NCBI GenBank assembly: GCA_024345305.1
Contig: BRON01000012.1
Span: forward strand, 1,240,001-1,304,000
DNA: 64,000 nucleotides
Direction of reading: 5' to 3'
Origin: Mrakia gelida
Taxonomy: Eukaryota; Basidiomycota; Tremellomycetes; Cystofilobasidiales; Mrakiaceae
A program made the position numbers and the translations under genes. Of this stretch, positions 3,778-59,260 are shown in pieces. The first letter of the stretch is position 1, and every line of letters begins with the position of its first letter. The notes beneath the pieces are model-generated. The model saw nothing but the letters and a program-made list of their open reading frames with translations. It had not been told where the DNA came from and searched no databases.

Positions 3778-6700
3778 ATGGTGAAACTCCTTTCCCTCCC
3801 CACTCTCCTTCTCTCCTTTCTATCTCTGAGCTCGTTAGGGCTTGCGAGCGATGCTCAATCGACGACGGAAGGAGGGGCCATGCCGTTTGAAGCTCGACAG
3901 CTCACGACGGATTCGTTCAAGCTCAGTACTTCGTCGGGATTGTGGTGAGTCGGTAAAGGAGCTAGCAGAGGGGTTGAGGATGTATGCTGATGAGTTTGGG
4001 CTGGGGTTTTGAACAGGCTGGTTGAGCATTTTAGTCCTCAGTGTGAGTTTAGAGACGAGGAGGGAAGGAGGAGGAGGAGGAGCGAGCTCGTCGAAGGAGG
4101 GGAGGGGAGGTCGGCTTGAGCTTGGAGGGAAAGCCAGGGAGGGATGAGGCAGGAAGGAGTGTGTGAGGTATGGTAGGGTGGATCGTGCGGGGAGAGTGTA
4201 TAGAGGGAGGATGGTGACGGGGAGGGGCAGCGAGAGAAGGAGCTCGAGCTCACCTCGACGATGGGATCATTCTCCCTCTTTCCGCCTTCGTCTCGCCTTA
4301 AAACGAGACTGATCTTGCTTTGTCTTTCTCTCCTCGTTAGGTGGACACTGTAGGGAGTTCGTGAGTGTCGTTCTCTCGCTTCTCGCGCTCTCAGAGAGTG
4401 CGGAAATCAGCGAAAAGGAAGCTCAAGCTGACCTCCCCTCCTTCCTTCCCTTCTTCCCTTCCGTCCCCTTCTCGTCGTCCGCACAGGCTCCAACATGGTT
4501 CAAGATCGCTGAGGAGAAGAAGGATCTAGAGAAGATTACTGGGTTCCATATGGCTCAAGTCAAGTGAGTAGACCGAACAACGAGCAGCTTGAGCTGGAAG
4601 ACGAAGAGGTTGTCGAACAGAGCTGACCTCGACCTCTCCTTCTTCCTCTTCGTCCTCGTCCTCTAGCTGCCTGGCGCAGGGAGGTGAGTCGACGCTTCGC
4701 TCGTGATCCCAGTAGAGATCAAGCTGAGAGCTTTTTTGTCGACTCAGACCTCTGCAACTCCAACGGTGTCAAGTTCTGTTCGTCCTTTCCCCTCCGACTC
4801 TCGAGTCGAACGAAGCTGACCGATCCGCCTGTTCCTTCTCTCTAGACCCCGACATCCGCTTGTTCGTCTCTCTTCCCCCATCTTTCCATCTAGCAGACAC
4901 TGATGACCTCTTTCTCTTCCTCCAGATATCAAGACGGAATCGAACTCGACCCCTACACCCTCTCTCGCTCGCCTGGCGTCCTCACCGAGTACATCGAGAC
5001 CATCTCGCGTCGCTACGCCAAACGAGCACCCGTCGCAGCTCCCGTGACTGCTGGAGTAGGAGCCTTGGGTGCTCAAGATGTGAAGGGACGAGCTGGGTCG
5101 GAGGTCGTCAGTCTCGATAAGGCTGGGCTGGAGAAGGTCAAGCAGGATGGGGGTTTCGTCAAGTTCTTCGCGCCTTGGTGAGTCTCCGAAGCGAATCAGC
5201 TGTGAACTGCGAGACGAAGCTGATCGTTTCTTCCGTTGTACCTATAGGTGTGGACAGTGAGTACTTTCCCCTACCTCAAACACCCTCGGTTTCGTGAGCT
5301 GATTTGTTCGTTGCTCGTCTTTCCAGCTGCAAGAAGCTCGCTCCCAGTTCGTTCCCTTCCTCATTCATGTTTCCCCGTCGCTGTGCTCGATGCTGACCAT
5401 CGCCCTCTTCATTCAGTCTACGCCGAGCTCGCTTCTGAACTCGCCGGTCAGATCACCGTCGCTGAGGTCAACTGCGAGGACCTCCCAGCCGTCTGCAAGA
5501 GCGAAGGAGTCCTGGGCTACCCACAACTCTTCTTGTGCGTTCGACTGTCTCTCTCGTCTTCGATCCCATCCCGACCGAGACTGACGCGCTCTTTGCCTCA
5601 ACAGGTTTGCCAACGGACAGAAGTACGAGCACACCGGAGCCAGGAGTCTCTCCTCGATGTCTGCTTTCGCCAAGAAGGCTATCGCGAGGTTCGTCGACGC
5701 GTCGTCTTTGTCGTTAGTTCTCGAACTCGACTGACCTGACCTTCGCTTCCTCCTCGATAGTGGTGACCTCGAATACGTGAACGCCGACAACATCAACGAC
5801 ATCGCTCAGAAGGAGGAGGTCTTCTTCATTTACCTTCACTCGTTCTCTTCGTCGCCGGACGATCTCGTTCGTTCAACTCCTCCCTCTTCGCCTTTCGTTA
5901 TCCAACGAGATCTGACCCTCTTCCTTCTCCTCCAGAAAACCGTCATGGACGCCTCTCGCTCCCTCATCGGCTCAGCAACCGTCTTCCAATCTCGCGACCC
6001 AGACATGTTCAAACTCACCGGCGTCTCCCCTCTCTCCGGACCCGTCCTCCTCTCCTTCAAAGACCACACACCCTCCACCCCTCTCCTCACTCTCGCCTTC
6101 ACCACCACTCCCAAAACCCTCTCCGTCGAGAAGGTTGCGTCTTTCCTCGAGGAGAACAAGCTTCCTACGGTCGTGAAGCTCGACAGCGGGAACTTTGGAG
6201 ACGTGATGAAGAACAAGCGAGGGAGTTTGGTCGTCCTCGCTGGGTTGAGGGCAGCGGATGATAAGGGGCGGGAGAAGCTTACCGAGGTGGCTACTGCTTG
6301 GCGGAGAGGAGGGAGGAAGTTCGATCAGGGAGTTATCTTCGCGTGGATGGACGGGGATAAGTGGGGAAAGTGGTTGAGCTCGAACTACGGGTGAGTCGAT
6401 CTCGTCGCGTCTTGAACGCGCCTGCTCTTCCCTTTCACCTCGCTGACTACCTTCGGACCTCTTTCTCTCTTCCCTGACAGAATGAGCAAATCCAAAATGC
6501 CTCAAGTCGTCGTCGCAGACCCCTCCGTGCGTCCTCCTGTCGACCTCCATTCGTGCCCTCGAACTCGATGCGTCTTGAACTGACGGCCTCCCTTCCCCTT
6601 CCCCATCTCTTTCCTCTACAGAAAATGGAGTACTACGACATCACCCTCGAGCTTGAGAAGATCGAGTTCGAAGGAGCGTCCATCTTCTCGACCCTCGAAG

Positions 6701-7132
6701 GAGTTTACCAACATTTCCTCAAGCCGAGAAGCGTCGAGAGCTGGGGAGAGCGAGCGATGCGAGCGTTTGGGCTTAAGATGCAGGGATGGCAGGTTCGTCT
6801 TTCATTCTCTCTCCTTCCGGACCATCTCGTTTCCCGAAGGCGTTCGTTCGCCTTTCAAACTCGAAACTGACGGGTCGTCTTCCCTTCCGCCGTTCTCTCT
6901 TTGCAGGATCGAGCGACGTCCCACCCAGTCATCTCCGTTCTCGCCTTAGGAGCTTTCACTCTCGTTGGACTGTGGGCGATCAGGACGTGTGTGAGGTAAG
7001 CATCGCGTTCCCTCGCCCGCTCTTCCCTTTGACGGGACGACGAGCTGACTCGCCTCTCGTCTCTTTTGCTCGGTCTGTAGGTGGGATTTCCCCGAAGTGG
7101 GTCACCAAAAGCTGACGGAGAGGCTGGATTGA
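3778..7132 (+). CDS. Membrane-anchored protein disulfide isomerase with two thioredoxin domains (TMX3/PDI-like)
   Basis: An ER oxidoreductase is inferred. The start ATG opens a signal peptide (MVKLLSLPTLLLSFLSLSSLG). Domain 1 has the active site FSPQCGHCREFAPTW, with Q where most PDIs have W. Domain 2 has KFFAPWCGHCKKLAP followed by VNCEDLPAVCKSEGVLGYPQL. A long b-type region follows, then a membrane helix (VISVLALGAFTLVGLWAI) and a short polar tail ending KLTERLD. No KDEL is seen, so membrane anchoring would replace ER retrieval. The gene is cut into many very small exons (26, 20, 17 and 16 nt in domain 1). The second CGHC is assembled from a 9-nt microexon. Stop TGA at 7130-7132. It lies tail-to-tail with MEMO1. 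Confidence 0.9.
5248..5256 (+). other. 9-nt microexon of the PDI gene
   Basis: The exon before it ends TTC GCG CCT TG with donor gtgagtctcc. The sequence ctatag, then GTGTGGACA, then gtgagtac supplies the last base of Trp, Cys, Gly and two bases of His. The next exon starts CTGCAAGAAG after tttccag. Joining the three gives APWCGHCKK, the universally conserved PDI active site. Without the 9-nt exon the site is destroyed, so the exon is strongly supported by the protein. Confidence 0.88.
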
Positions 7133-41749: not shown

Positions 41750-43083
41750 GGCTTGGATGGGATGGGTTGAGAGGTCGGGTTTGAGTGAGTGAGAGTTGAG
41801 GGAAAGGGAGGGAGAGAGGAGGGAGGGGCGCTTGAACGAAATGACGCGAGAAGATCGAGCCGTTCCATCTCGGCCGCTAGGCTCGAAGGTTCGAAGGTTT
41901 TCTCGATCTGACGCGAGGTGATGGGTAGGCCGTGCTGAGCGCTAGGACACGAAAGGAGCTGAATTGTGAGAAAGGTGAAACAGCGACGACGATCAAGAGA
42001 GAGAAGAAGGAGGTCGATCCGTCGACAACAACGCGTCCTCAAACGCGAGTCGAGATAGGTCTCTGGTGTCTATGTCCCGTCAACAGGTCAAGGATGAGCA
42101 ATGGGAACCCTCTCAATAAGGTGTGGGCTTACACATTGACGGGTGCAGCTGTTACAGAGGAAGAGCAGATCATGTCGACGCGTCGCGTCGGGTCTGATCT
42201 TAAGTGTCGTCTAGTGCTGTTCCCATCTCGTCCGAGCTTCCTCTGTACTCTTTTCTTCTCTACCGCACTTCATCTCAAGATTCATCCGATGTTGGGTAGA
42301 GAATGTCGTTCGGCAGGACCGAAATGCTCAACAAAAACCACTCGCGTCAAGAAAGCTACCCTGCGTCGAAAAGCCACCCTCCTGAGAAAAGCCACTCGGG
42401 GGAGAGAAGTCACCGTGCCATCGAAAGCAATCAGGCTGAAGTCGTATTTTTCCTCGTGAGCTGGCGCTGGAGCGCAAGAGGAACTCGATCACAGTGAGCG
42501 ACAAAGAAGAAAGAAAGCTGAAAGCCAACTCGCGTCGCCCGAGGAAGAAGAAAGACTCGCTCGCCTGTCCTCGCGTCGCCTTCGCATCTCCGACTGACAC
42601 AGCACTTGACCTCATTCTGTTAGTGCTTTCCCAAAAGTCATCACAAGCGCACGAGCAGGGCCCATGCGAAAGGGAAGCAGCCAGCTCTTTGAGTCGAATC
42701 GCCTGTCTGTCTCCCGTTCGACAGGTCTCCTCTACTCTCGTCTTTTCCTCTTGAACTCGTGCTTGTACAGCCTCGAGTGCTTCACGCCTTACATCTGTGT
42801 CTGAGCTTCTCGCTATCACAGCGGACAGAAGGGGAAGGAGGTGAAGCAGCGTCGTGAAGTTGGTTGCTCTGCCATCCGATTTGACGCGTCTCGGTTCTCC
42901 CTACCTCTTGTTTCGAAGACCCTTCCTCCCGAAATCTCCCACAAGAGTCTCGGGAACGCACCGAGATCGGTCTCTACCTTCCAGACCCGCCAGGTCTCGA
43001 GGAATCACGCTCCGAAACCCGTTTTCCCAGGTCGCTGATCGGTTTTAAACTCCGATTTCGTTGTACAATAACCTCACTGTTGG
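41750..43083. other. Gene-poor stretch, about 1.3 kb
   Basis: No conserved protein or clean splice series was found on either strand. The open frames here lack motif support. A patch around 42340-42450 has repeated gaaaagccac-like units (ctgcgtcgaaaagccac, ctgagaaaagccac). Confidence 0.4.
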
Positions 43084-43239
43084 GTTGGATAGTATAGTTG
43101 GTTAGTACACACGGTTCTGATCAACATCAGCAGCTTCCGCTTCTTCTCGTTCCTCTTCTCAACAAGGCAGGAAGAGAAGGAGCAAGTTGCTTCAACAAAT
43201 CGTCTCCGTGGGACCTGGGTTCGAATCCCTGTCCGACCT
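43084..43239 (+). tRNA. tRNA-Gln (anticodon CTG) with an 83-nt intron
   Basis: Acceptor stem GGTTGGA (43084-43090) pairs with TCCGACC (43232-43238), with one G-U pair. The D arm is AGTATAGTTGGTTAGTACA-like. Anticodon stem CACGG/CCGTG encloses loop TTCTGA+T, anticodon CTG. The intron lies after base 37 (43122-43204), its canonical place. The T loop is TTCGAAT with stem CTGGG/CCCTG, which has one T-T mismatch. A TTTTT Pol III terminator follows at 43242-43246. The intron-containing tRNA-Gln(CTG) pattern is known in fungi. Confidence 0.85.
43122..43204 (+). other. Intron of tRNA-Gln
   Basis: 83 nt between anticodon-loop positions 37 and 38, as for eukaryotic tRNA introns removed by the tRNA splicing endonuclease. 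It is long for a tRNA intron. It contains pyrimidine-rich (ttccgcttcttctcgttcctcttct) and purine-rich (aggaagagaaggag) halves that could pair with each other. Confidence 0.75.
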
Positions 43240-51467: not shown

Positions 51468-54400
51468 ATGTCCTCTTCTCCTACTCCTTCCTCGTCAAGG
51501 AAGCATCCTCTCAAATCCCAACAGCAGCAGCAACAACCCACCCCTGAGGAAGAAGAAGAAGAAGACGTGAAACCTTTGAAGAAACGAGCTAGGAAAGCGC
51601 CTTCGCCTCCTCCCTCTCAAGGTGAAGACGACGACGACGAGGAGGAGGAACCCGCTTCTGCTTCTTCACCTTCCAAGGGACGCGGAGGAGGAGGAAGAGT
51701 CAACGGACATGCTGAGTCTTCGAGATCTGGAGCTGGAGGAGGAGGAGGGGGAGAGCAGGCCGAGGATCAAGACGAGGAGGAGGACGAGGATGTGGTGGAG
51801 GATGGGAACGGGACGATGAACGATCTCAGCGATGAGTTGAAGGCCAGGTTGGCTCAGAGGGGGGAAGATGGGTGAGTTCAGTCTCTTCTATCTTTCTTTT
51901 TGAGCAGAAGAAGGGGCGCATATAATATTCGGGGTCGAGGAAGAAGGGAGGGAAGGGAGAGAGCTCAAGGTGGAGGGAGGGAGGAGGGAGAGGGGAGGGG
52001 GAGTCGATCCCCTCGTTCATCTCCTTCTATATGTTTCTCGATTTCGAGGGCGAAGAAGGATAGATATCCTTCTCAGCTTTCTCTGGTAGAAATTTGAAGC
52101 TTTTGGATGGCACCAAGCTCGATATATCGACGATTGGAAGACGAGAACCTCAAGCTCACCTTATCTCCCCTTCCCTCCTTCCCCTCTTCAAGATACCTCC
52201 CTGGAGCTGTCGTTCGAGTCGCCTTCAGGAACTTCCTCACTTACGACTGGGCAGAGTTTTACCCTGGACCTCATCTCAACATGATCATCGTGAGTTGGAA
52301 TCCCTCTTCGTCGCTCTCTCTTCCCCTCCTCGTCTCGAGCTCGAGCTCACCACACGCTCGACTTCGCTTCCCTTCCTCCCCTCTCTCCCTTCTCCTCTTC
52401 AACTTCCAGGGCCCCAACGGAACTGGAAAATCGACGATCGTCTGTGGAATCGCCATCGGACTCGGGTGGTCTCCCAAAGTGCTCGGTCGAGCGGACCTGA
52501 TCCAAGCGTTCCTCAAGTACGGAGCCACCAAAGGTCACACCGAGATCGAGCTCAAGAGTCCCTCTGGTCCGAACGGGGAAGTAGGAAGGAACGTCATCAT
52601 CAAGAGGGAGATCATCAAGGAGAGTGAGAAGACGAGGTACTGGTTGGACAGTCAGTTCCTTCAAGCGAAGACGAGCGAGGTTTCTCTCTCCCTTCAGCGA
52701 GTCAAAGCTCACCGACGTTTCCCTTCCTCTTTCTTCTTCAGGTGAACTCGCTACGGCCAAGACGATTCGAGAGAAGGTCATCGCCTTGAACATCCAGATC
52801 GGTAACCTCTGGTGAGTTCAGTTGTCCCACCGTCTCTCTCTCTCTCTCCCTCCTTCACTCTCGCTCGAGCTCACCTCGTTCCCTCCCCTCCCCTCAGCTC
52901 CTTCCTCCCTCAAGACAAAGTCTCCTCCTTCGCTACCATGACTCCCCAGGAACTCCTTCGTCAGACTCAGAAGGCTGCTGGTCCCGCTAAGATGACGGAG
53001 TGGCACGAGAACTTGATCAAGCTAGGGAAGGAGTGGAAGGAGATGGATCATGTGAGTTCGACGGACGACGTGACGTGAAGAGAAGGCCGAGAAGGCACCT
53101 CGAACCGAACCCTGACGCGTCTCTCTTCTTTTCTTTTCTTTCCTTTGTCGACGACGAACAGAATCTCGAAGTCAAGAAGGCCGAACTCGAGAGGAAGAGA
53201 GCTCAGAACCAGAGGTTGGAGGGAGACGTGAACGACGCGAGGGAGAGGGAGAGGTTGGCCACCGAGGTCAGTCGCGTTTCGCTGCTCTTCCCCCTACCTC
53301 TGAGCCCGGATGAAAAAAAACTCTCGGGACTGACGAACGAACGAACGCGTTTTTTTTTTTTTTTTTTCCTTCCTTCCTTCCTCTCAGATCCTGTTCCTCG
53401 AGCGCATGATCCCCTTCGCCGAATACAACTCGAACCGGATCATCTGGGAGGAGTACAAGAAGGAGCGAGCTGCCGCTCATCAGGAGCACAAGAAGGCTGT
53501 GGCTATGACGGAACCGTATAGGGTGTTGTCTGGGTGAGTTCTCCGACCTCGATGTAGATGTGCGAAGAGAAGAGGGTCGCGAGATCGAGTTCTGAAGCTG
53601 ACCCTCCGTCGTTTTGCTTTCGTCGTCGTCGTCGCAGAGCCCTCCAAGATCGAGAGGAAGAAGCTCGCGTCAAAGTCAAGGACATCCAGTCGCATCAGAC
53701 CAAGATCGACAAGAGCCAGATTCAGTTGATGGATCAGATCACGAAGCAGGTTCGTTTGCGTTCCTCTTTCCTTGCGAGACGAAGAGCCTGGACGCGTCTC
53801 TGACTTGTCATCCCTTGCTCCTCGTCCTTGTATCGCTCTCTAACAGGAAGACGCCAAGGAGGCACTCAACTCCAAGATCGACAACGTCAAGAAGAAGGCT
53901 TTGAAGAGGGTCGAGGACATCGTCACTCAGAAGAGGACCATCGAGAAGCTCGAGAACGATTGGGAGCAGAGGGTTGAGCCTGGGTCGAAGGAGCAGTTGG
54001 AGGAGCAGAGGGTACGTCTCGAGTCTTCTCGTGCGTCGGTGTTCGCGCTCTGAAGAGTGGATGCTGACTCGTCGCGTTCGCTTTTTTGTGGGGACGATCA
54101 GAGAAAAGCCAAGAGGGACGCCGCTGAGCTCGACGACCAGTACAACCGAGAGGTCCAGAACGAGGATCGAAACATCAAGAGGACGATTCAGGACAAGCAG
54201 AACGAGGTCGGACGACAGAAGCAGAAGTGAGTACGCGTCTTCTATCTGCGACGCGGAACGCGAAGTTCGACGACCGGCTGACTTCGACGCGTCCCTCGTC
54301 TCCTCCTCTCCTAGGATCGAGCAACTCTCCCAAGTCTCCTACCGTCGGTTCCAGAATCTTCAGCAGTGGCCCGACTCCCACGACATCGTTCGCCTCGTTC

Positions 54401-57400
54401 AGGTCATCCGACAGGACAAGGAACGAGTCGCTCAAGGTCACCCCTCGATCTTCAAGATGGAAGTCTTCGAGCCTCCTTGTCTCTCGGTCGACGTCACGGA
54501 TCCCAAGATCGCTGGTCTCGTCGAAGCTTGCATCTCCGGAACTCAGATGAGGGTGAGTTGAGCTCTCTGCGTCGCTCTTCGGGATCGAACTCGAACTCGT
54601 CGAACTGACGTGCCCCTCTTTCCCCCTCTCTCTCTCTCGTGCTTCGCTAGACCGTCGTCGTCCAGTGCGAGGGGGACTACCAGACTATCGGATCGTTCAC
54701 CGACGGACCGAACAACTGCATCAAGACTCAACTCAACAAGCTTCACTACACCAAGATCGACAAGCCGTATCGACCTCAAGCAGGACCTGTCGACCGTGCT
54801 CAGGTTCGTTGGCGCTTCCTTCCACTCTCGAACAGAGCGAAGTCCCAAACTGACCTGTCTCTCTTTTCGCACCTCAGCTTCAAGACCTCGGATTCGACGG
54901 TTACGCTATCGACTTCGTCAAGGCTCCGGATCCCATCAAGTCGTTCCTCGAGATCCACTGCAACCTCCATCGTTCGGTGAGTCTCTGCCCGTCCCTGTTC
55001 TCGTTCTTCGAACACCCACTCTCGCTACAGGATAGACGCTGACCGAGATCTTCTTCTCGTTTCACAGGCTGTCTCGCGAAGGAAGATCGGAGACGGAGGG
55101 ATCAGTTGGGAGAGGGTCAGCCAAACCGACCTTCGAAGCTACGTCGCCGGAGACACCAAGTACGCGACCTCGGTCTCGAAGTACGGAAACCAAGCCAAGT
55201 CGAGTGGAACGACTCAGATCAACCCTGCTCGAAGCTTTGCTGGAACTGGTCAGTCTCTCCTCCGCTTCTTGAGCTCGGGGGGCTCGAACGCGAACTCGAC
55301 GCGACGATCTGACGAACCTCGACTTTCGCTTGCCTTTCAGTCGACGAGAACGCCATCGCCGAAGCCAACCGACTCATCGACGCTGCTACTAAGGACATCG
55401 ATCGAACCAACAAGATGCTTCACGAACTCAGGGCTCGAGGAAACGAGTTGATCGCCGCGAAGGGTGCCGTCGAGGCGAAGTTGGTGAGTCCTTTCTCGCC
55501 TCCCTTCGAACACGTCTCGAGGCTCGTACTGATCGTTTCGCTTTTCGCTTTCGTTCTCGTTCTCGTAGGAGGAGATCAGGCAAGAGCTCGAGATGATCAA
55601 GAAGGTCGAGGTCAAGAACGCTACGATCGCTACGAAACTCGGTGAGTCGCGTCGAGGGACCAGTCGAAGAGACGATTTCCCGCTGACCCTCATTCTCACT
55701 CCCTTCCTCTTCGTTCCAGAGGATGCCAAGAGGAAACTTCGAAATCTCCAGAATGCTCCCTCGGAAGAAGACCAGAAGGCTCGATACCAACGAGAACTCC
55801 AGGAGGTGATCAAGTCGATGCTGAAGCTGGATCTCAAGTTCAGGGTTCGTCGTCCTCTCCATTCACCTCTCTTCGTTCCTTTTCGTCTCTCGTGTTCGCT
55901 GATCTGGGATTGTTCGCTTTCGTCCCATCGTCCCACAGGACGCCAGTCTGAAAGCCACCAAACTCTACCACATGCTCGTCGATCAACAACTCGAGCTTCT
56001 CCAGGTCGAGGCCAATCGACACGCCGTCAGCGAGCTCTGCGAGATCGAGCAGGAGGCGGAGGAGGCTGCTGCTAAGGCCTTCAATGCTGGTGAGTCTCAG
56101 CTTTGCTTCCTTTCTCTCCCCTTCGACCTCGAGCGCCGCTGTTGCTTTTCAGCGTCGATCGATCTCACGTCCTCGTCGTCGAAGATTGCTTTCTGACGAA
56201 TGCTTTTCTCTCTTACCTTTCCCAGCCGAGAAGAGGTACAAGACCCAGAAGGCCACGACTACGGCCCTTCTCCATGCAGCTTCCGAACAGCTCGAGGCGT
56301 TGGACGACGAGACGAGAGCGGCGTTCATGAGTCGAAAGGAGGTGAGTCGCGCCGTTTCTAGCTCCCTCTCCCTCTCGCTCCCCTTCCTTCCCTCCCTTTC
56401 CCCCTTTCGGAAGGGGACTCTGAATCTCGAAATGGGATGCTGACTCGTCGTTCTCTCTCTTTTGTTTCGCTCTCTCAGGATCTCACCGAACTCAACGGAG
56501 GAACGATCCCGGAATCGAATCAACTTCAAGACGAGAAGACCCAACTCGAGGTGGAGCTCGACGGTCTTGGAGGAGAGGACCCTGCTGTGATCCAGAAGTA
56601 CGAGAGGGCGAAGGCTGAGGTGCGTTTCGTTCCTCCATGTCTCCCCCTCCCTCGCGTCGAGTCGAGCGAACGCCCTGTCAAATTCGATGCTGACCTCCCC
56701 CCCTCTTTATCTCTTCTCTTTTATCGCGATAACAGATCGCTCGAGTCGAGAAGGACCACGCCGACATGGAAGAGAAGGAACGAACCGTGAACAAGGCGAT
56801 CAAGTCGTTCAGGGTAAGTCTCGACGTCTCTTTGTTTCCTTCTCTCTCGCGCGACGAGTCTGACATCGTGATCTTTCTTTTTGCTTCCAAACATACAGGC
56901 CAAGTGGGTTCCCGAGCTTCAAAAGCTGGTAACCAACTTCAACAAGAAGTTCTCTGCTGCTATGGATTGTGAGTCGTCGTTCGTTTGCTCTTCCTCGTTT
57001 CGCGACCGTTCGACTGACTGGTCCGCCTCCACTTCTCCTTCTTCTCCCAGCTCTCGACGACCGAGGAGAGATCCGAATCAAGGAGCACGAGGGTACGTTT
57101 ACCAACCCCATGCCCAAGCTTTCCCGCACCAACGGAGAGCTGACTTCTCATCCCCCTCGTCGCTTTCAGACTACGCCGAGTGGGCCATCGAGATCCTCGT
57201 CTCTTTCCGTGCCACCGACAAGATGCAGCTCCTCACGGCGACTCATCAGTCTGGAGGAGAACGATCCCTATCGACCATCATGTACCTCATGTCTCTCATC
57301 GAACTCAGCAACGCTCCTTTCTCCCTCGTCGACGAGTGAGTCCTTCGTTCCTTTCGAGTTGGTCGACGGCGCGTCGTCCGTCTCTTTGTTCACCTCGCTG

Positions 57401-58135
57401 ACCTTCCCTTTCTCCTTCCTGTTCCTTTTCCTTTCCACTTCCATCTCAGGATCAACCAGGGAATGGATACCCGAGCCGAGAGAGCTGTTCACAACCGAAT
57501 GGTCGACGTGAGTTCGCTCTTCCTCATGTCTTCGTTCAACGACGCCTTTGCTGATGGTCTTGCCCTCTTCGCTTCTCAGGTTACCTGTGCTGCCAACTCG
57601 GGCCAGTTCTTCCTTCTCACCGTGAGGCTCACTCGGTCCATAGAGTCGGCTCGAGAGACGCTCGAAAGAACAACAAACTGACGCGTCTCGGCCCTCCTTC
57701 TTCTTCCCTTCGCTTTCCGAACCACCAGCCCAAGCTCCTCACCGACCTTCATTACCACGACAACATGCGAGTCCTCGTCATCTGCAACGGAGAGGTACGT
57801 CTCATCTTCCCTTTTGACTCGCTTCTCCGTCTCGTCGCGTCGAAGCTCGAAGCTGACCTCGTCGATTCCGACTCCCTTCCCTCCTCCCCCTCCTCTTCTC
57901 CCTTATTTTTTTCCCCGGTTCCTCATCTACCAGTGGAGTACGTCTATCCTTCCATCTGCCTCATCCTTTCCTCGCCTACATATCCCTTCTCTACTCGCGC
58001 TCTCGAAACTGACCAACGCACCCTCCCTCCCTCCCAACAGTGCCCGAACGAGAACCCAAGGATACCCGAGGGAAGAAGTACCTCAACTACGTTCTCGATA
58101 GGTACAAGAGGAAGAACCAGATCGCTCCGAGATGA
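51468..58135 (+). CDS. SMC5: SMC5, structural maintenance of chromosomes protein 5
   Basis: Subunit of the Smc5/6 complex for recombination repair and replication fork stability. The N-terminal acidic and low-complexity segment is long. The ATPase head gives GAVVRVAFRNFLTYDWAEF, Walker A GPNGTGKSTIVCGIAIGLGW and GNLCSFLPQDKVSSFATMTP. Two coiled coils flank a hinge (QTIGSFTDGPNNCIKTQLNK, RSAVSRRKIGDGGISWERV). The C-terminal head gives YAEWAIEILVSFRATDKMQL, signature ATHQSGGERSLSTIMYLMSL and Walker B PFSLVDEINQGMDTRAERAV, then GQFFLLTPKLLTDLHYHDNM and RVLVICNGEW. The last join uses a 4-nt microexon and gives NGEWMPEREPKDTRGKKYLN, ending NQIAPR, TGA at 58133-58135. More than 20 introns. An intron at about 53277-53390 has 18 T residues as its pyrimidine tract. 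Confidence 0.94.
53350..53367 (+). repeat. Run of 18 T in an SMC5 intron
   Basis: Lies between the branch region (gggactgacgaac) and the acceptor ctctcag, so it acts as an extended polypyrimidine tract. Length could be unstable. Confidence 0.8.
57934..57937 (+). other. 4-nt microexon of SMC5
   Basis: Reads tctaccag, TGGA, gtacgtct. Upstream exon ends AAC GGA GAG (57794) with donor gtacgt; downstream exon starts TGCCCGAACGAG (58041) after caacag. With TGGA the protein reads NGEWMPEREP and runs to a stop at 58133; without it the frame shifts into low-complexity sequence. SMC5 proteins end with a W-x-P block here (for instance SWIP in budding yeast). Both flanking introns (139 and 103 nt) have their own ctgacc branch sites. 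Confidence 0.8.
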
Positions 58136-58560
58136 TCGCCCCTTGCCCTTTCGTCGCTTCTTGCTTTCGAGTTTCTTGCTATCTTTGCTTCCCACCTCTG
58201 TTCTTCTGCTTCTAGTCCACCAGCCTACTTAACGACCGTTCTCTCTGCCTCCCTTCATCTCTCTTTCTTCATGTCTTTCTCGATCGGTTCCTTGCAGTCC
58301 TTCGGTTTCGTCTTTCGTTTTTCGATTCGCTTTTCGTTGTTTCTCTCTTCCCGCTCTTTCTTTCGCTCTATCACTCGTGCCTGGATTTTGATCCGCCAAT
58401 GTAGCTGAGAGTAGCCGGAAGGGATCGTTTTCGTCCTGACCAGGGTTGACGAGCCTTCGGACGAAGAGAGAGAGAAGAAACGGCGGGACGGGGACAACGC
58501 GAAGTCGACGACGCGGCGGCGTTGGTTCGAGACGATCTTGAAGCAACGAGGGGATGATTG
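58136..58560. other. SMC5 3' flank
   Basis: About 425 bp, T/C-rich in its first half with repeated tttcg motifs, probably the SMC5 3' UTR and end of transcription. Nothing else recognised before the SMC5-like copy. Confidence 0.4.
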
Positions 58561-58814
58561 TGCGAGGGGATTAACTTTGAAGCAGGAATCCGAACCTCCG
58601 TGGTCTTCAACGCACAGTGGTGTGAGTTTAACCCTCTTCGACGTCTCGTTCTCGCGCCGAGCGAAAGCTGACCTCGCTCGCAAGCTGTCTCCTCGTCCTC
58701 GTCTCCCCTTCCATTTTTCGAACAGTGCCCGTCCGAAAGACAAGGAACGACACCAACGGCAAGATGTACATCTCTCGTCTCCTGAGCGAGACTAAACGAC
58801 TTCGTGGATACTAA
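58561..58814 (+). pseudogene. Partial, diverged copy of the SMC5 3' end
   Basis: Two exon-like pieces joined by a normal-looking intron (58622-58725, with gtgagt, agctgacc and gaacag). The joined reading gives GINFEAGIRTSVVFNAQW and LPVRKTRNDTNGKMYIS, ending RLRGY with TAA at 58812-58814. This aligns with the SMC5 end YHDNMRVLVICNGEWMPEREPKDT: R, V, N, W and P identical and most others conservative. The DNA also matches, 20 of 30 bases over ATGCGAGTC...GGAGAG, and both last exons begin TGCCCG. A frame stop lies upstream and no start codon or other SMC5 exon is seen. It could be a dead duplicate or an unused alternative terminal exon. Confidence 0.5.
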
Positions 58815-59260
58815 AAGATCGGATCGCGTCGCGTCGCGTGTCAACTACTCTCTTCTCCCCCTTCGTTTCTTTCTCGCTTGTCTTGATCTCCGTTCGTTTT
58901 CGATATCCATTCACGTACCTTAACAATTTCCTCATACCTTACCTACCCTTGTCCTAAGTTTCAATTCTCTTTCTTCGTCTCTCACAGGATGCCCGTTCAG
59001 CCAATCGACCGAAACGCACGAGCATTAAGACAGCGCTAGTCTAGTAGTACCGAGTACACAGCAAGAAAAAGAGAAAGAGAGCACATGAAGCAGTTCCGGG
59101 GGTCGTGATTATCGTTGAAACGTAAAGGTATGCAAAGAACGAAGGGGAAGAAAGATGAAGAAGGGGGAGAAAGTCCGTGCGTGTGTGGTTTTGGTTGTTT
59201 CGTGTTTCGTATGAGAAGCCGACTCCTTCCTTCCTCCTCCCTATCCGACTGACTGGCCGA
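58815..59260. other. Intergenic region, about 450 bp
   Basis: T-rich and comparatively AT-rich around 58880-58980. It is the 3' flank of the converging unrecognised gene. No coding segment recognised. Confidence 0.4.

What the first reader, a model, noticed from the sequence alone, without database searches (positions are those of the whole stretch)
57795..58040. 4-nt microexon (TGGA) in SMC5 completes a conserved W-x-P motif
Seen: donor gtacgt after AAC GGA GAG, then a 139-nt intron with aagctgacc branch and atctaccag acceptor, then TGGA, then gtacgt and a 103-nt intron with gaaactgacc branch and caacag acceptor. Only the 4-nt exon gives ICNGEWMPEREP and a clean stop. SMC5 C-termini carry a W-x-P at this point. 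A 4-nt exon is at the lower limit of known exon size and cannot be recognised by normal exon definition, so it must depend on intron definition.
Basis: partly seen in the sequence, partly recalled or inferred. Interest (0 to 1): 0.8.

Follow-up and report, generated by a model that had tools for sequence, protein, structure and literature searches.

The report
Four-base exon in fungal SMC5 gene
In a basidiomycete yeast related to Mrakia, the chromosome-maintenance gene SMC5 appears to contain a protein-coding exon only four bases long that supplies a tryptophan found in nearly all the fungal SMC5 proteins examined; it is a convincing, easily missed example of something already known elsewhere (exons down to one base), not a new kind of thing.

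Summary
Held-out splice scores are acceptable for both introns. Only this splicing gives NGEWMP, and the tryptophan is in 149 of 150 fungal SMC5 proteins read. A spliced aligner (intron cost 20) picks exactly this exon with 116 of 120 homologues; 0 of 1500 shuffles of the interval score as well. The genome's second SMC5 gene, about 65 kb away, encodes the same tryptophan contiguously with its upstream exon and has only the downstream intron, so one extra intron 4 nt from a shared one makes the microexon.

Corrections: the organism is Mrakia-like, not a red yeast of the Microbotryum kind. Four nt is not the lower limit (1-nt exons are published). A donor shifted by 4 nt also gives a clean stop, with V for W; the public Mrakia frigida model reads exactly that, probably an annotation workaround. 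Tiny exons occur elsewhere in this window: a disulfide-isomerase-like gene has seven of 9-30 nt, one supplying the catalytic C-G-H.

No RNA evidence was available. Verdict: very probably real, new member of a known kind.

The parts
51468..58136 (+). SMC5a gene model, 29 coding exons, 28 introns, 1219 aa
   Evidence: joined exons open throughout; Pfam SMC_N and AAA_23; 94% to Mrakia frigida P0002 over the last 180 aa
57729..57794 (+). exon 27, PKLLTDLHYHDNMRVLVICNGE, ends ..GGA GAG
57795..57933 (+). intron 27 (139 nt), GTACGT...CTGACC...CCAG; no counterpart in SMC5b
   Evidence: held-out score 21.4 bits, inside the range of introns 1-26 (17.3-30.1); absent from SMC5b
57934..57937 (+). 4-nt microexon TGGA (codon W plus first base of M)
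   Evidence: exactly this exon and both introns chosen in spliced alignment with 116 of 120 homologues at intron cost 20; 0 of 1500 shuffles as good
57938..58040 (+). intron 28 (103 nt), position and phase shared with SMC5b intron 29
   Evidence: held-out score 17.0 bits, just under the lowest training intron; same aligned position and phase in SMC5b
58041..58136 (+). last coding exon, (A)TG CCC GAA CGA ... TGA
   Evidence: closely similar tail in Mrakia frigida P0002
58558..58977 (+). relic of the 3' end of an SMC5b-like gene: LCEGINFEAGIRTSVVFNAQW|LPVRKTRNDTNGKMYISRLLSETKRLRGY* with intron 58622-58725, plus similar 3' flank
   Evidence: DNA alignable to SMC5b from 58583 to 58977, 73%; protein match 58722-58811; translation

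Best explanation
TGGA at 57934-57937 is a constitutive 4-nt coding exon of SMC5a. Two short introns flank it. Each is removed by pairing of its own donor with its own CTGAC branch and the first AG after it (intron definition). They are probably removed one after the other, since U1 on the second donor (3 exonic bases) and the 3'-splice-site factors on the first acceptor cannot well share 4 nt. Inclusion supplies the nearly invariant tryptophan of the SMC5 C-terminal NGEWxP motif and keeps the frame of the last 31 residues. It exists because SMC5a carries an intron (27) exactly 4 nt upstream of an intron (28) that the Mrakia-lineage paralogue SMC5b shares; intron 27 was either gained in SMC5a or lost from SMC5b. 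Shown: sequence grammar, frame, homology and the paralogue comparison. Inferred: actual splicing, order of removal, constitutive use, and gain rather than loss.
For: Splice elements and frame. Held-out scores: intron 27 = 21.4, intron 28 = 17.0; the alternative donor 57799 scores -12.5 against 7.9 for the donor of intron 27. CTGAC occurs exactly twice in 57795-58040, once in each intron, with no AG between branch and acceptor. W in 149 of 150 homologues. Spliced alignment at cost 20: 116 of 120 homologues pick both introns exactly, the W-lacking M. frigida model among them; 3 of the other 4 still use the 57933 acceptor; over 8 longer queries this was the only exon under 25 nt among 126 internal exons called. 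0 of 1500 shuffles. SMC5b reads GGA GAG TGG C|gtaagt...|TG CCC: W contiguous, intron only at the position of intron 28. The public Mrakia frigida SMC5a model reads NGEVLPEREP, exactly the product of the 4-nt-shifted donor in this DNA, as expected if its gene predictor could not place a 4-nt exon. Another gene in the window has exons of 26, 20, 17, 30, 16, 9 and 20 nt.
Against: No RNA data. Donor 28 has poor exonic bases (GGA), and intron 28 scores just below the lowest training intron (17.0 against 17.3); SMC5b introns, not used in training but chosen with the same scores, run from 6.4 to 25.4. Intron 27 has a long branch-to-acceptor distance (77 nt against 24-54 in introns 5-26). At higher intron costs the aligner often stops early: cost 24, 55 of 120 pick both introns, 64 take intron 27 and end in the microexon, 1 ends upstream; cost 28, 5 of 120 pick both and 115 end before the microexon. 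No other exon of SMC5a is under 42 nt and none listed for SMC5b is under 49, so tiny exons are not typical of this gene family. The Mrakia frigida record lacks the W; whether RNA supports that model could not be checked.
Confidence: 0.93

Rival explanations
1. No microexon: the donor lies 4 nt downstream (57799, GTAC^GTCTCA), one 242-nt intron is removed and the protein reads NGEVLPEREP, as the public Mrakia frigida model says. The tryptophan has been lost in this lineage.
For: Gives the same frame and stop; matches the annotated Mrakia frigida P0002.
Against: Donor GTCTCA scores -12.5 bits against 7.9 for GTACGT just upstream. P0002 is the one homologue of 150 without W. It leaves the acceptor, the second branch site and the second donor around TGGA unexplained. 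SMC5b and its relic keep the W.
Confidence: 0.04
2. A single 246-nt intron (57795-58040) is removed and the 4 nt are skipped, as main or regulated product; the frame shifts and the C-terminus becomes CPNENPRIPEGRSTST...
For: The outer donor and outer acceptor are both good (19.5 bits). Skipping of artificially shortened tiny exons is described in the discussion of PMC4674806.
Against: Destroys the conserved NGEWxP motif and the tail shared with M. frigida and Phaffia. 246 nt would exceed every other intron of the gene except the first (median 93 for introns 1-26).
Confidence: 0.02
3. A stwintron (D1,2 type): removal of intron 27 joins G to TGGAGT and creates a donor GTGGAG, so that TGGA is then removed with the rest.
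For: The junction GA|G-TGGAGT does form a GT (sequence). Stwintrons are established in fungi (PMC5639578, abstract and passages seen).
Against: Product reads NGDARTRTQGYPREEVPQLRSR* and loses the conserved tail; the new donor was not scored but departs from the GTRNGT seen in most introns here, and GTACGT lies four nt later.
Confidence: 0.005
4. SMC5a also uses an alternative 3' end: the microexon (or exon 27 through TGGT at 58618) is spliced to the SMC5b relic downstream, giving NGEW[M/L]PVRKTRNDTNGKMYISRLLSETKRLRGY.
For: The relic keeps an open last exon with a donor GTGAGT and an acceptor, and a CAG before TGGT; both joins are in frame. Microexon to 58726 scores 16.0 by site quality alone (intron 57938-58725).
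Against: That intron would be 788 nt, far longer than any other in the gene; acceptor 58617 has no good branch (score 9.1, 823 nt); exon 27 joined directly to 58726 loses the frame. The relic has a stop just before its open stretch and 6 nonsynonymous against 3 synonymous codon differences from SMC5b in the last exon, as for an unconstrained fragment.
Confidence: 0.01

Closest known systems
1-nt exon of CYP621A in Fusarium (PMC12940212; abstract, introduction, results and discussion read)
   Same: Fungal gene; ultra-short exon deduced from a conserved motif, frame and an intronless relative; unusually long apparent intron as the clue; easily missed by annotation.
   Different: 1 nt rather than 4; Fusarium; confirmed there by RNA reads, not here.
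1-nt exons of APC11 and VPS55 in plants (PMC4674806 abstract and discussion; PMC8831610 passages)
   Same: Tiny exon between two introns; in flowering plants VPS55 likewise has one paralogue clade with and one without the microexon; widespread misannotation.
   Different: Plants; experimentally supported.
Microexons of 2-10 aa in Phanerochaete chrysosporium P450 genes (PMC1184071; passages)
   Same: Basidiomycete genes with many tiny exons.
   Different: Shortest reported there 6 bp.
Stwintrons (PMC5639578; abstract and passages)
   Same: Two introns packed into one apparent long intron, needing consecutive splicing.
   Different: Here 4 nt of coding sequence are kept between the introns; a stwintron keeps none.

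Membership tests
SMC5 | SMC head domains with Walker A, signature and Walker B, SMC5-type C-terminus | tested here: met
   GPNGTGKST, QSGGERSLST, SLVDEINQGMD in the translation (motif names recalled); Pfam PF02463 and PF13476; the five best of 13 solved sequences are Smc5
Microexon (coding exon under about 30 nt) | Flanking introns with donor, branch and acceptor within the gene's norms | tested here: met
   intron 27 has a long branch distance and intron 28 is at the low edge
Microexon (coding exon under about 30 nt) | Needed for the conserved protein and frame | tested here: met
Microexon (coding exon under about 30 nt) | Present in mature RNA | not testable with these tools
   no RNA reads available
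Stwintron | Removal of the internal intron rebuilds a splice motif of the external intron and no coding base is kept | tested here: not met
   product loses the conserved tail
Recursive splice site / RS-exon | Joining to the upstream exon regenerates a good 5' splice site at the junction | tested here: not met
   exon begins TGGA; only GTGGAG would form (sequence)

The most novel reading that the evidence does not exclude
The Mrakia lineage runs an extreme intron-definition genome in which constitutive exons of 4-30 nt are common and often sit inside catalytic or invariant motifs (SMC5 W-x-P, PDI C-G-H-C), and after an SMC5 duplication one copy acquired a new intron only 4 nt from an old one, so that inclusion of the 4-nt exon can act as a frame switch for SMC5a.
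Probability: 0.1. Interest if true: 0.6.

Novelty: new member of a known kind. Interest (0 to 1): 0.36.

Why it matters
It is a clean test case for how the spliceosome handles exons too short for exon definition, with a built-in control about 65 kb away: a paralogue with the same downstream intron and no microexon. It also shows how a public gene model can silently replace a nearly invariant tryptophan by valine, probably because the software could not place a 4-nt exon, and it suggests this intron-dense yeast lineage as a place to survey ultra-short exons.

Tried and rejected
First spliced-alignment runs used an intron cost of 8, which rewards introns: they chose the microexon with 5 of 6 and 118 of 120 queries, but also called other, spurious tiny exons (for example 6 nt at 54547 and 0 nt at 54804 in 7 of 7 queries), so they were set aside and repeated with costs 20, 24 and 28. 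In one search the sixth query, the paralogue P0004, was drawn into the relic. The intron-position comparison was shifted by a dropped stop sign and was redone. Tandem-duplication origin of intron 27 from intron 28: similarity ranks 161 of 378 intron pairs, so not supported. Dispersed copies: introns 27 and 28 each match only themselves in the genome at E up to 10 (the search skips simple repeats). Alternative last exon from the relic: see rivals. A grammar scan for exons of 15 nt or less gave 5 candidates on both strands and none in 20 block shuffles of the + strand, but 3 of the 5 (6519 on +, 29475 and 32150 on -) lie inside ordinary exons on reading, so that shuffle control is too easy. Protein searches added homologues but no further Mrakia SMC5 in the lists shown. 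A search of solved structures with exon 27 alone gave only weak Smc5 matches. Literature: searches (open-access library only); none of the listed titles and abstract openings reports this SMC5 exon or the Mrakia SMC5 duplication. Not surveyed: how frequent tiny exons are in the whole genome; gene structure of SMC5 in Phaffia or M. frigida (no DNA at hand).

Full report
WHAT IS THERE. The stretch 57795-58040 reads as described: donor GTACGT after AAC GGA GAG, a 139-nt intron with AAGCTGACC and ATCTACCAG, the four bases TGGA (57934-57937), donor GTACGT, a 103-nt intron with GAAACTGACC and CCCAACAG, then TGCCCGAACG. A complete model of the gene, 29 coding exons from 51468 to 58136, is open for 1219 codons (one search had an error in intron 4). 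It is SMC5: Pfam SMC_N and AAA_23; of 13 solved sequences matched, the five best are Smc5, and the four shown aligned read GSWIP at this point (budding yeast by recall). The nearest protein is from Mrakia frigida (94% over the last 180 residues), then Phaffia rhodozyma. The host is therefore a Mrakia-like basidiomycete yeast (Cystofilobasidiales; the order is named for Phaffia in the listing and recalled for Mrakia), not a red yeast of the Microbotryomycetes: Phenoliferia and Microbotryum are distant in a 19-row tree.

ALTERNATIVE SPLICINGS OF THE SAME DNA. Microexon used: NGEWMPEREPKDTRGKKYLNYVLDRYKRKNQIAPR*. Donor shifted 4 nt (57799): NGEVLPEREPKDT... with the same stop. Microexon skipped: NGECPNENPRIPEGRST..., frame lost. 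Stwintron reading: NGDARTRTQGYPR..., frame lost. Either intron kept: frame lost. So two readings keep the tail, and only the microexon gives the tryptophan.

HOW CONSERVED IS THE TRYPTOPHAN. Two searches found 2505 and 644 proteins and listed the best 120 each; together 150 different homologues were read. By a pattern search 147 have W, and two more (P0128, P0141) by eye; the one exception is P0002, the public Mrakia frigida SMC5a model, with NGEVLP. W-x-P is complete in 146 of 150 (P0071, P0073 and P0110 have W without the P two on). P0002 is exactly what the shifted donor gives in our DNA (GAG GTA C|TG CCC). The simplest reading is that the annotation of M. frigida hides the same microexon. 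I could not see M. frigida DNA or whether RNA supports its model.

SPLICE-SITE STRENGTH. Matrices were trained on introns 1-26 of the gene only. Intron 27 scores 21.4 and intron 28 scores 17.0; introns 1-26, scored on themselves, run from 17.3 to 30.1. The shifted donor scores -12.5 against 7.9 for the GTACGT of intron 27. Introns of the paralogue, not used in training but placed with the same scores, run from 6.4 to 25.4. CTGAC occurs exactly twice in the 246 bases, once in each intron, and no AG lies between branch and acceptor. Against: the exonic bases of donor 28 (GGA) are poor, and the branch of intron 27 is 77 nt from its acceptor, against 24-54 for introns 5-26.

SPLICED ALIGNMENT. I wrote a protein-to-genome aligner that allows exons of any length. 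With an intron cost of 8 it chose the microexon with 118 of 120 homologues but also called spurious tiny exons elsewhere, so I raised the cost. With cost 20, 116 of the 120 homologues chose introns 57795-57933 and 57938-58040 exactly, the M. frigida model without W among them; of the other four (P0071, P0073, P0110, P0111) three still used the acceptor at 57933; for the 116, forbidding the microexon lowered the score by 5.7 to 21.9 bits (median 10.7). Among 126 internal exons called for 8 longer queries, TGGA (8 of 8) was the only one under 25 nt. With cost 24, 55 of 120 kept both introns, 64 took intron 27 and ended inside the microexon, and 1 ended upstream; with cost 28, 5 of 120 kept both and 115 ended before the microexon. 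With the Phaffia tail as query and cost 20, 0 of 1500 dinucleotide shuffles of 57801-57998 reached the observed score; 32 of 1500 used any exon of 12 nt or less there.

THE PARALOGUE. The genome holds a second SMC5 gene, SMC5b, on the other strand about 65 kb downstream (C12:1363696-1370092, with SMC5a ending at 1298136), the counterpart of Mrakia frigida P0004. The duplication follows the split from Phaffia (SMC5a and SMC5b clades 100/100 each, together 98/97). SMC5b encodes ...GTC TTC AAC GGA GAG TGG C|gtaagt ... acag|TG CCC: the tryptophan is contiguous with the upstream exon and only the downstream intron is present. Of the 28 introns of SMC5a, 24 lie at the same aligned position and phase in SMC5b, intron 28 among them; intron 27 is one of four without a counterpart (19, 22, 26, 27). 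So the microexon exists because intron 27 lies 4 nt from a shared intron. Gain in SMC5a or loss from SMC5b cannot be told apart without outgroup DNA. Intron 27 does not resemble intron 28 more than other introns do (rank 161 of 378 pairs), and neither has another match in the genome.

THE NEIGHBOURHOOD. Downstream of SMC5a lies a fragment of the 3' end of an SMC5b-like gene, with the same contiguous W and single intron (58583-58977 alignable). It mimics the TGGN|GT pattern but reads as a relic; splicing of the microexon to its last exon would be in frame but over 788 nt. Elsewhere in the window a protein disulfide-isomerase-like gene (3778-7132; two thioredoxin matches) has 18 exons in my model, seven of them 9-30 nt long (26, 20, 17, 30, 16, 9, 20). 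The 9-nt exon GTGTGGACA (5248-5256) supplies the C-G-H of FAPWCGHCKKLAP; the annotated Mrakia frigida orthologue reads the same WCGHCKKLAP, and 113 of the 120 homologues listed contain WCGHC at least once, a loose count since such proteins can have two domains, as this one does. Tiny exons are therefore not unique to SMC5a here. They are also not universal: no other exon of SMC5a is under 42 nt and none listed for SMC5b is under 49. How common they are genome-wide was not surveyed.

MECHANISM. Each intron has its own complete set of signals within the usual length, so intron definition is the natural account, with removal one after the other, as the authors argue for the 1-nt exon of Arabidopsis (PMC4674806 discussion). 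That U1 and the acceptor factors cannot share 4 nt is an inference. Regulation is possible but nothing here points to it.

KNOWN OR NEW. Exons of 1 nt are published for Arabidopsis and other plants (PMC4674806, PMC8831610) and for Fusarium (PMC12940212), the last also stating that exons of 2-5 bases are known in Arabidopsis, Drosophila and humans. Basidiomycete P450 genes have microexons down to 6 bp (PMC1184071). This is a new, well-supported member of a known kind, in a new gene and lineage, with a paralogue as control. No RNA evidence was available.

Noticed in passing
3778-7132 (+): PDI-like gene with 18 exons in my model, seven of them 9-30 nt; the 9-nt exon 5248-5256 supplies C-G-H of the WCGHC active site; skipping it would keep the frame and give FAPCCKK.
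   Followed up: partly
G000 C12:1363696-1370092 (-), L022: Second SMC5 gene (SMC5b), 46% identical to SMC5a over 1181 aligned residues; the duplication is shared with Mrakia frigida (P0002 and P0004, equal contig lengths) and later than the split from Phaffia.
   Followed up: partly
G000 C12, about 1369268 (-), L022: In-frame TAG at codon 198 of the SMC5b model, where M. frigida P0004 has none; it is the only stop in the modelled frame. Recent pseudogene, assembly error or unrecognised splicing not resolved.
   Followed up: no
58558-58977 (+): Fragment of the 3' end of an SMC5b-like gene just downstream of SMC5a, as if SMC5b once stood next to SMC5a; 6 nonsynonymous and 3 synonymous codon differences in the last exon against SMC5b.
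   Followed up: partly
43083-43239 (+): tRNA match of 157 bases (Rfam RF00005), long enough to suggest a sizeable tRNA intron.
   Followed up: no
protein P0002 (Mrakia frigida public model): The public SMC5a model reads NGEVLP where the other 149 homologues read have W; probably a gene-prediction workaround for the missed 4-nt exon.
   Followed up: partly
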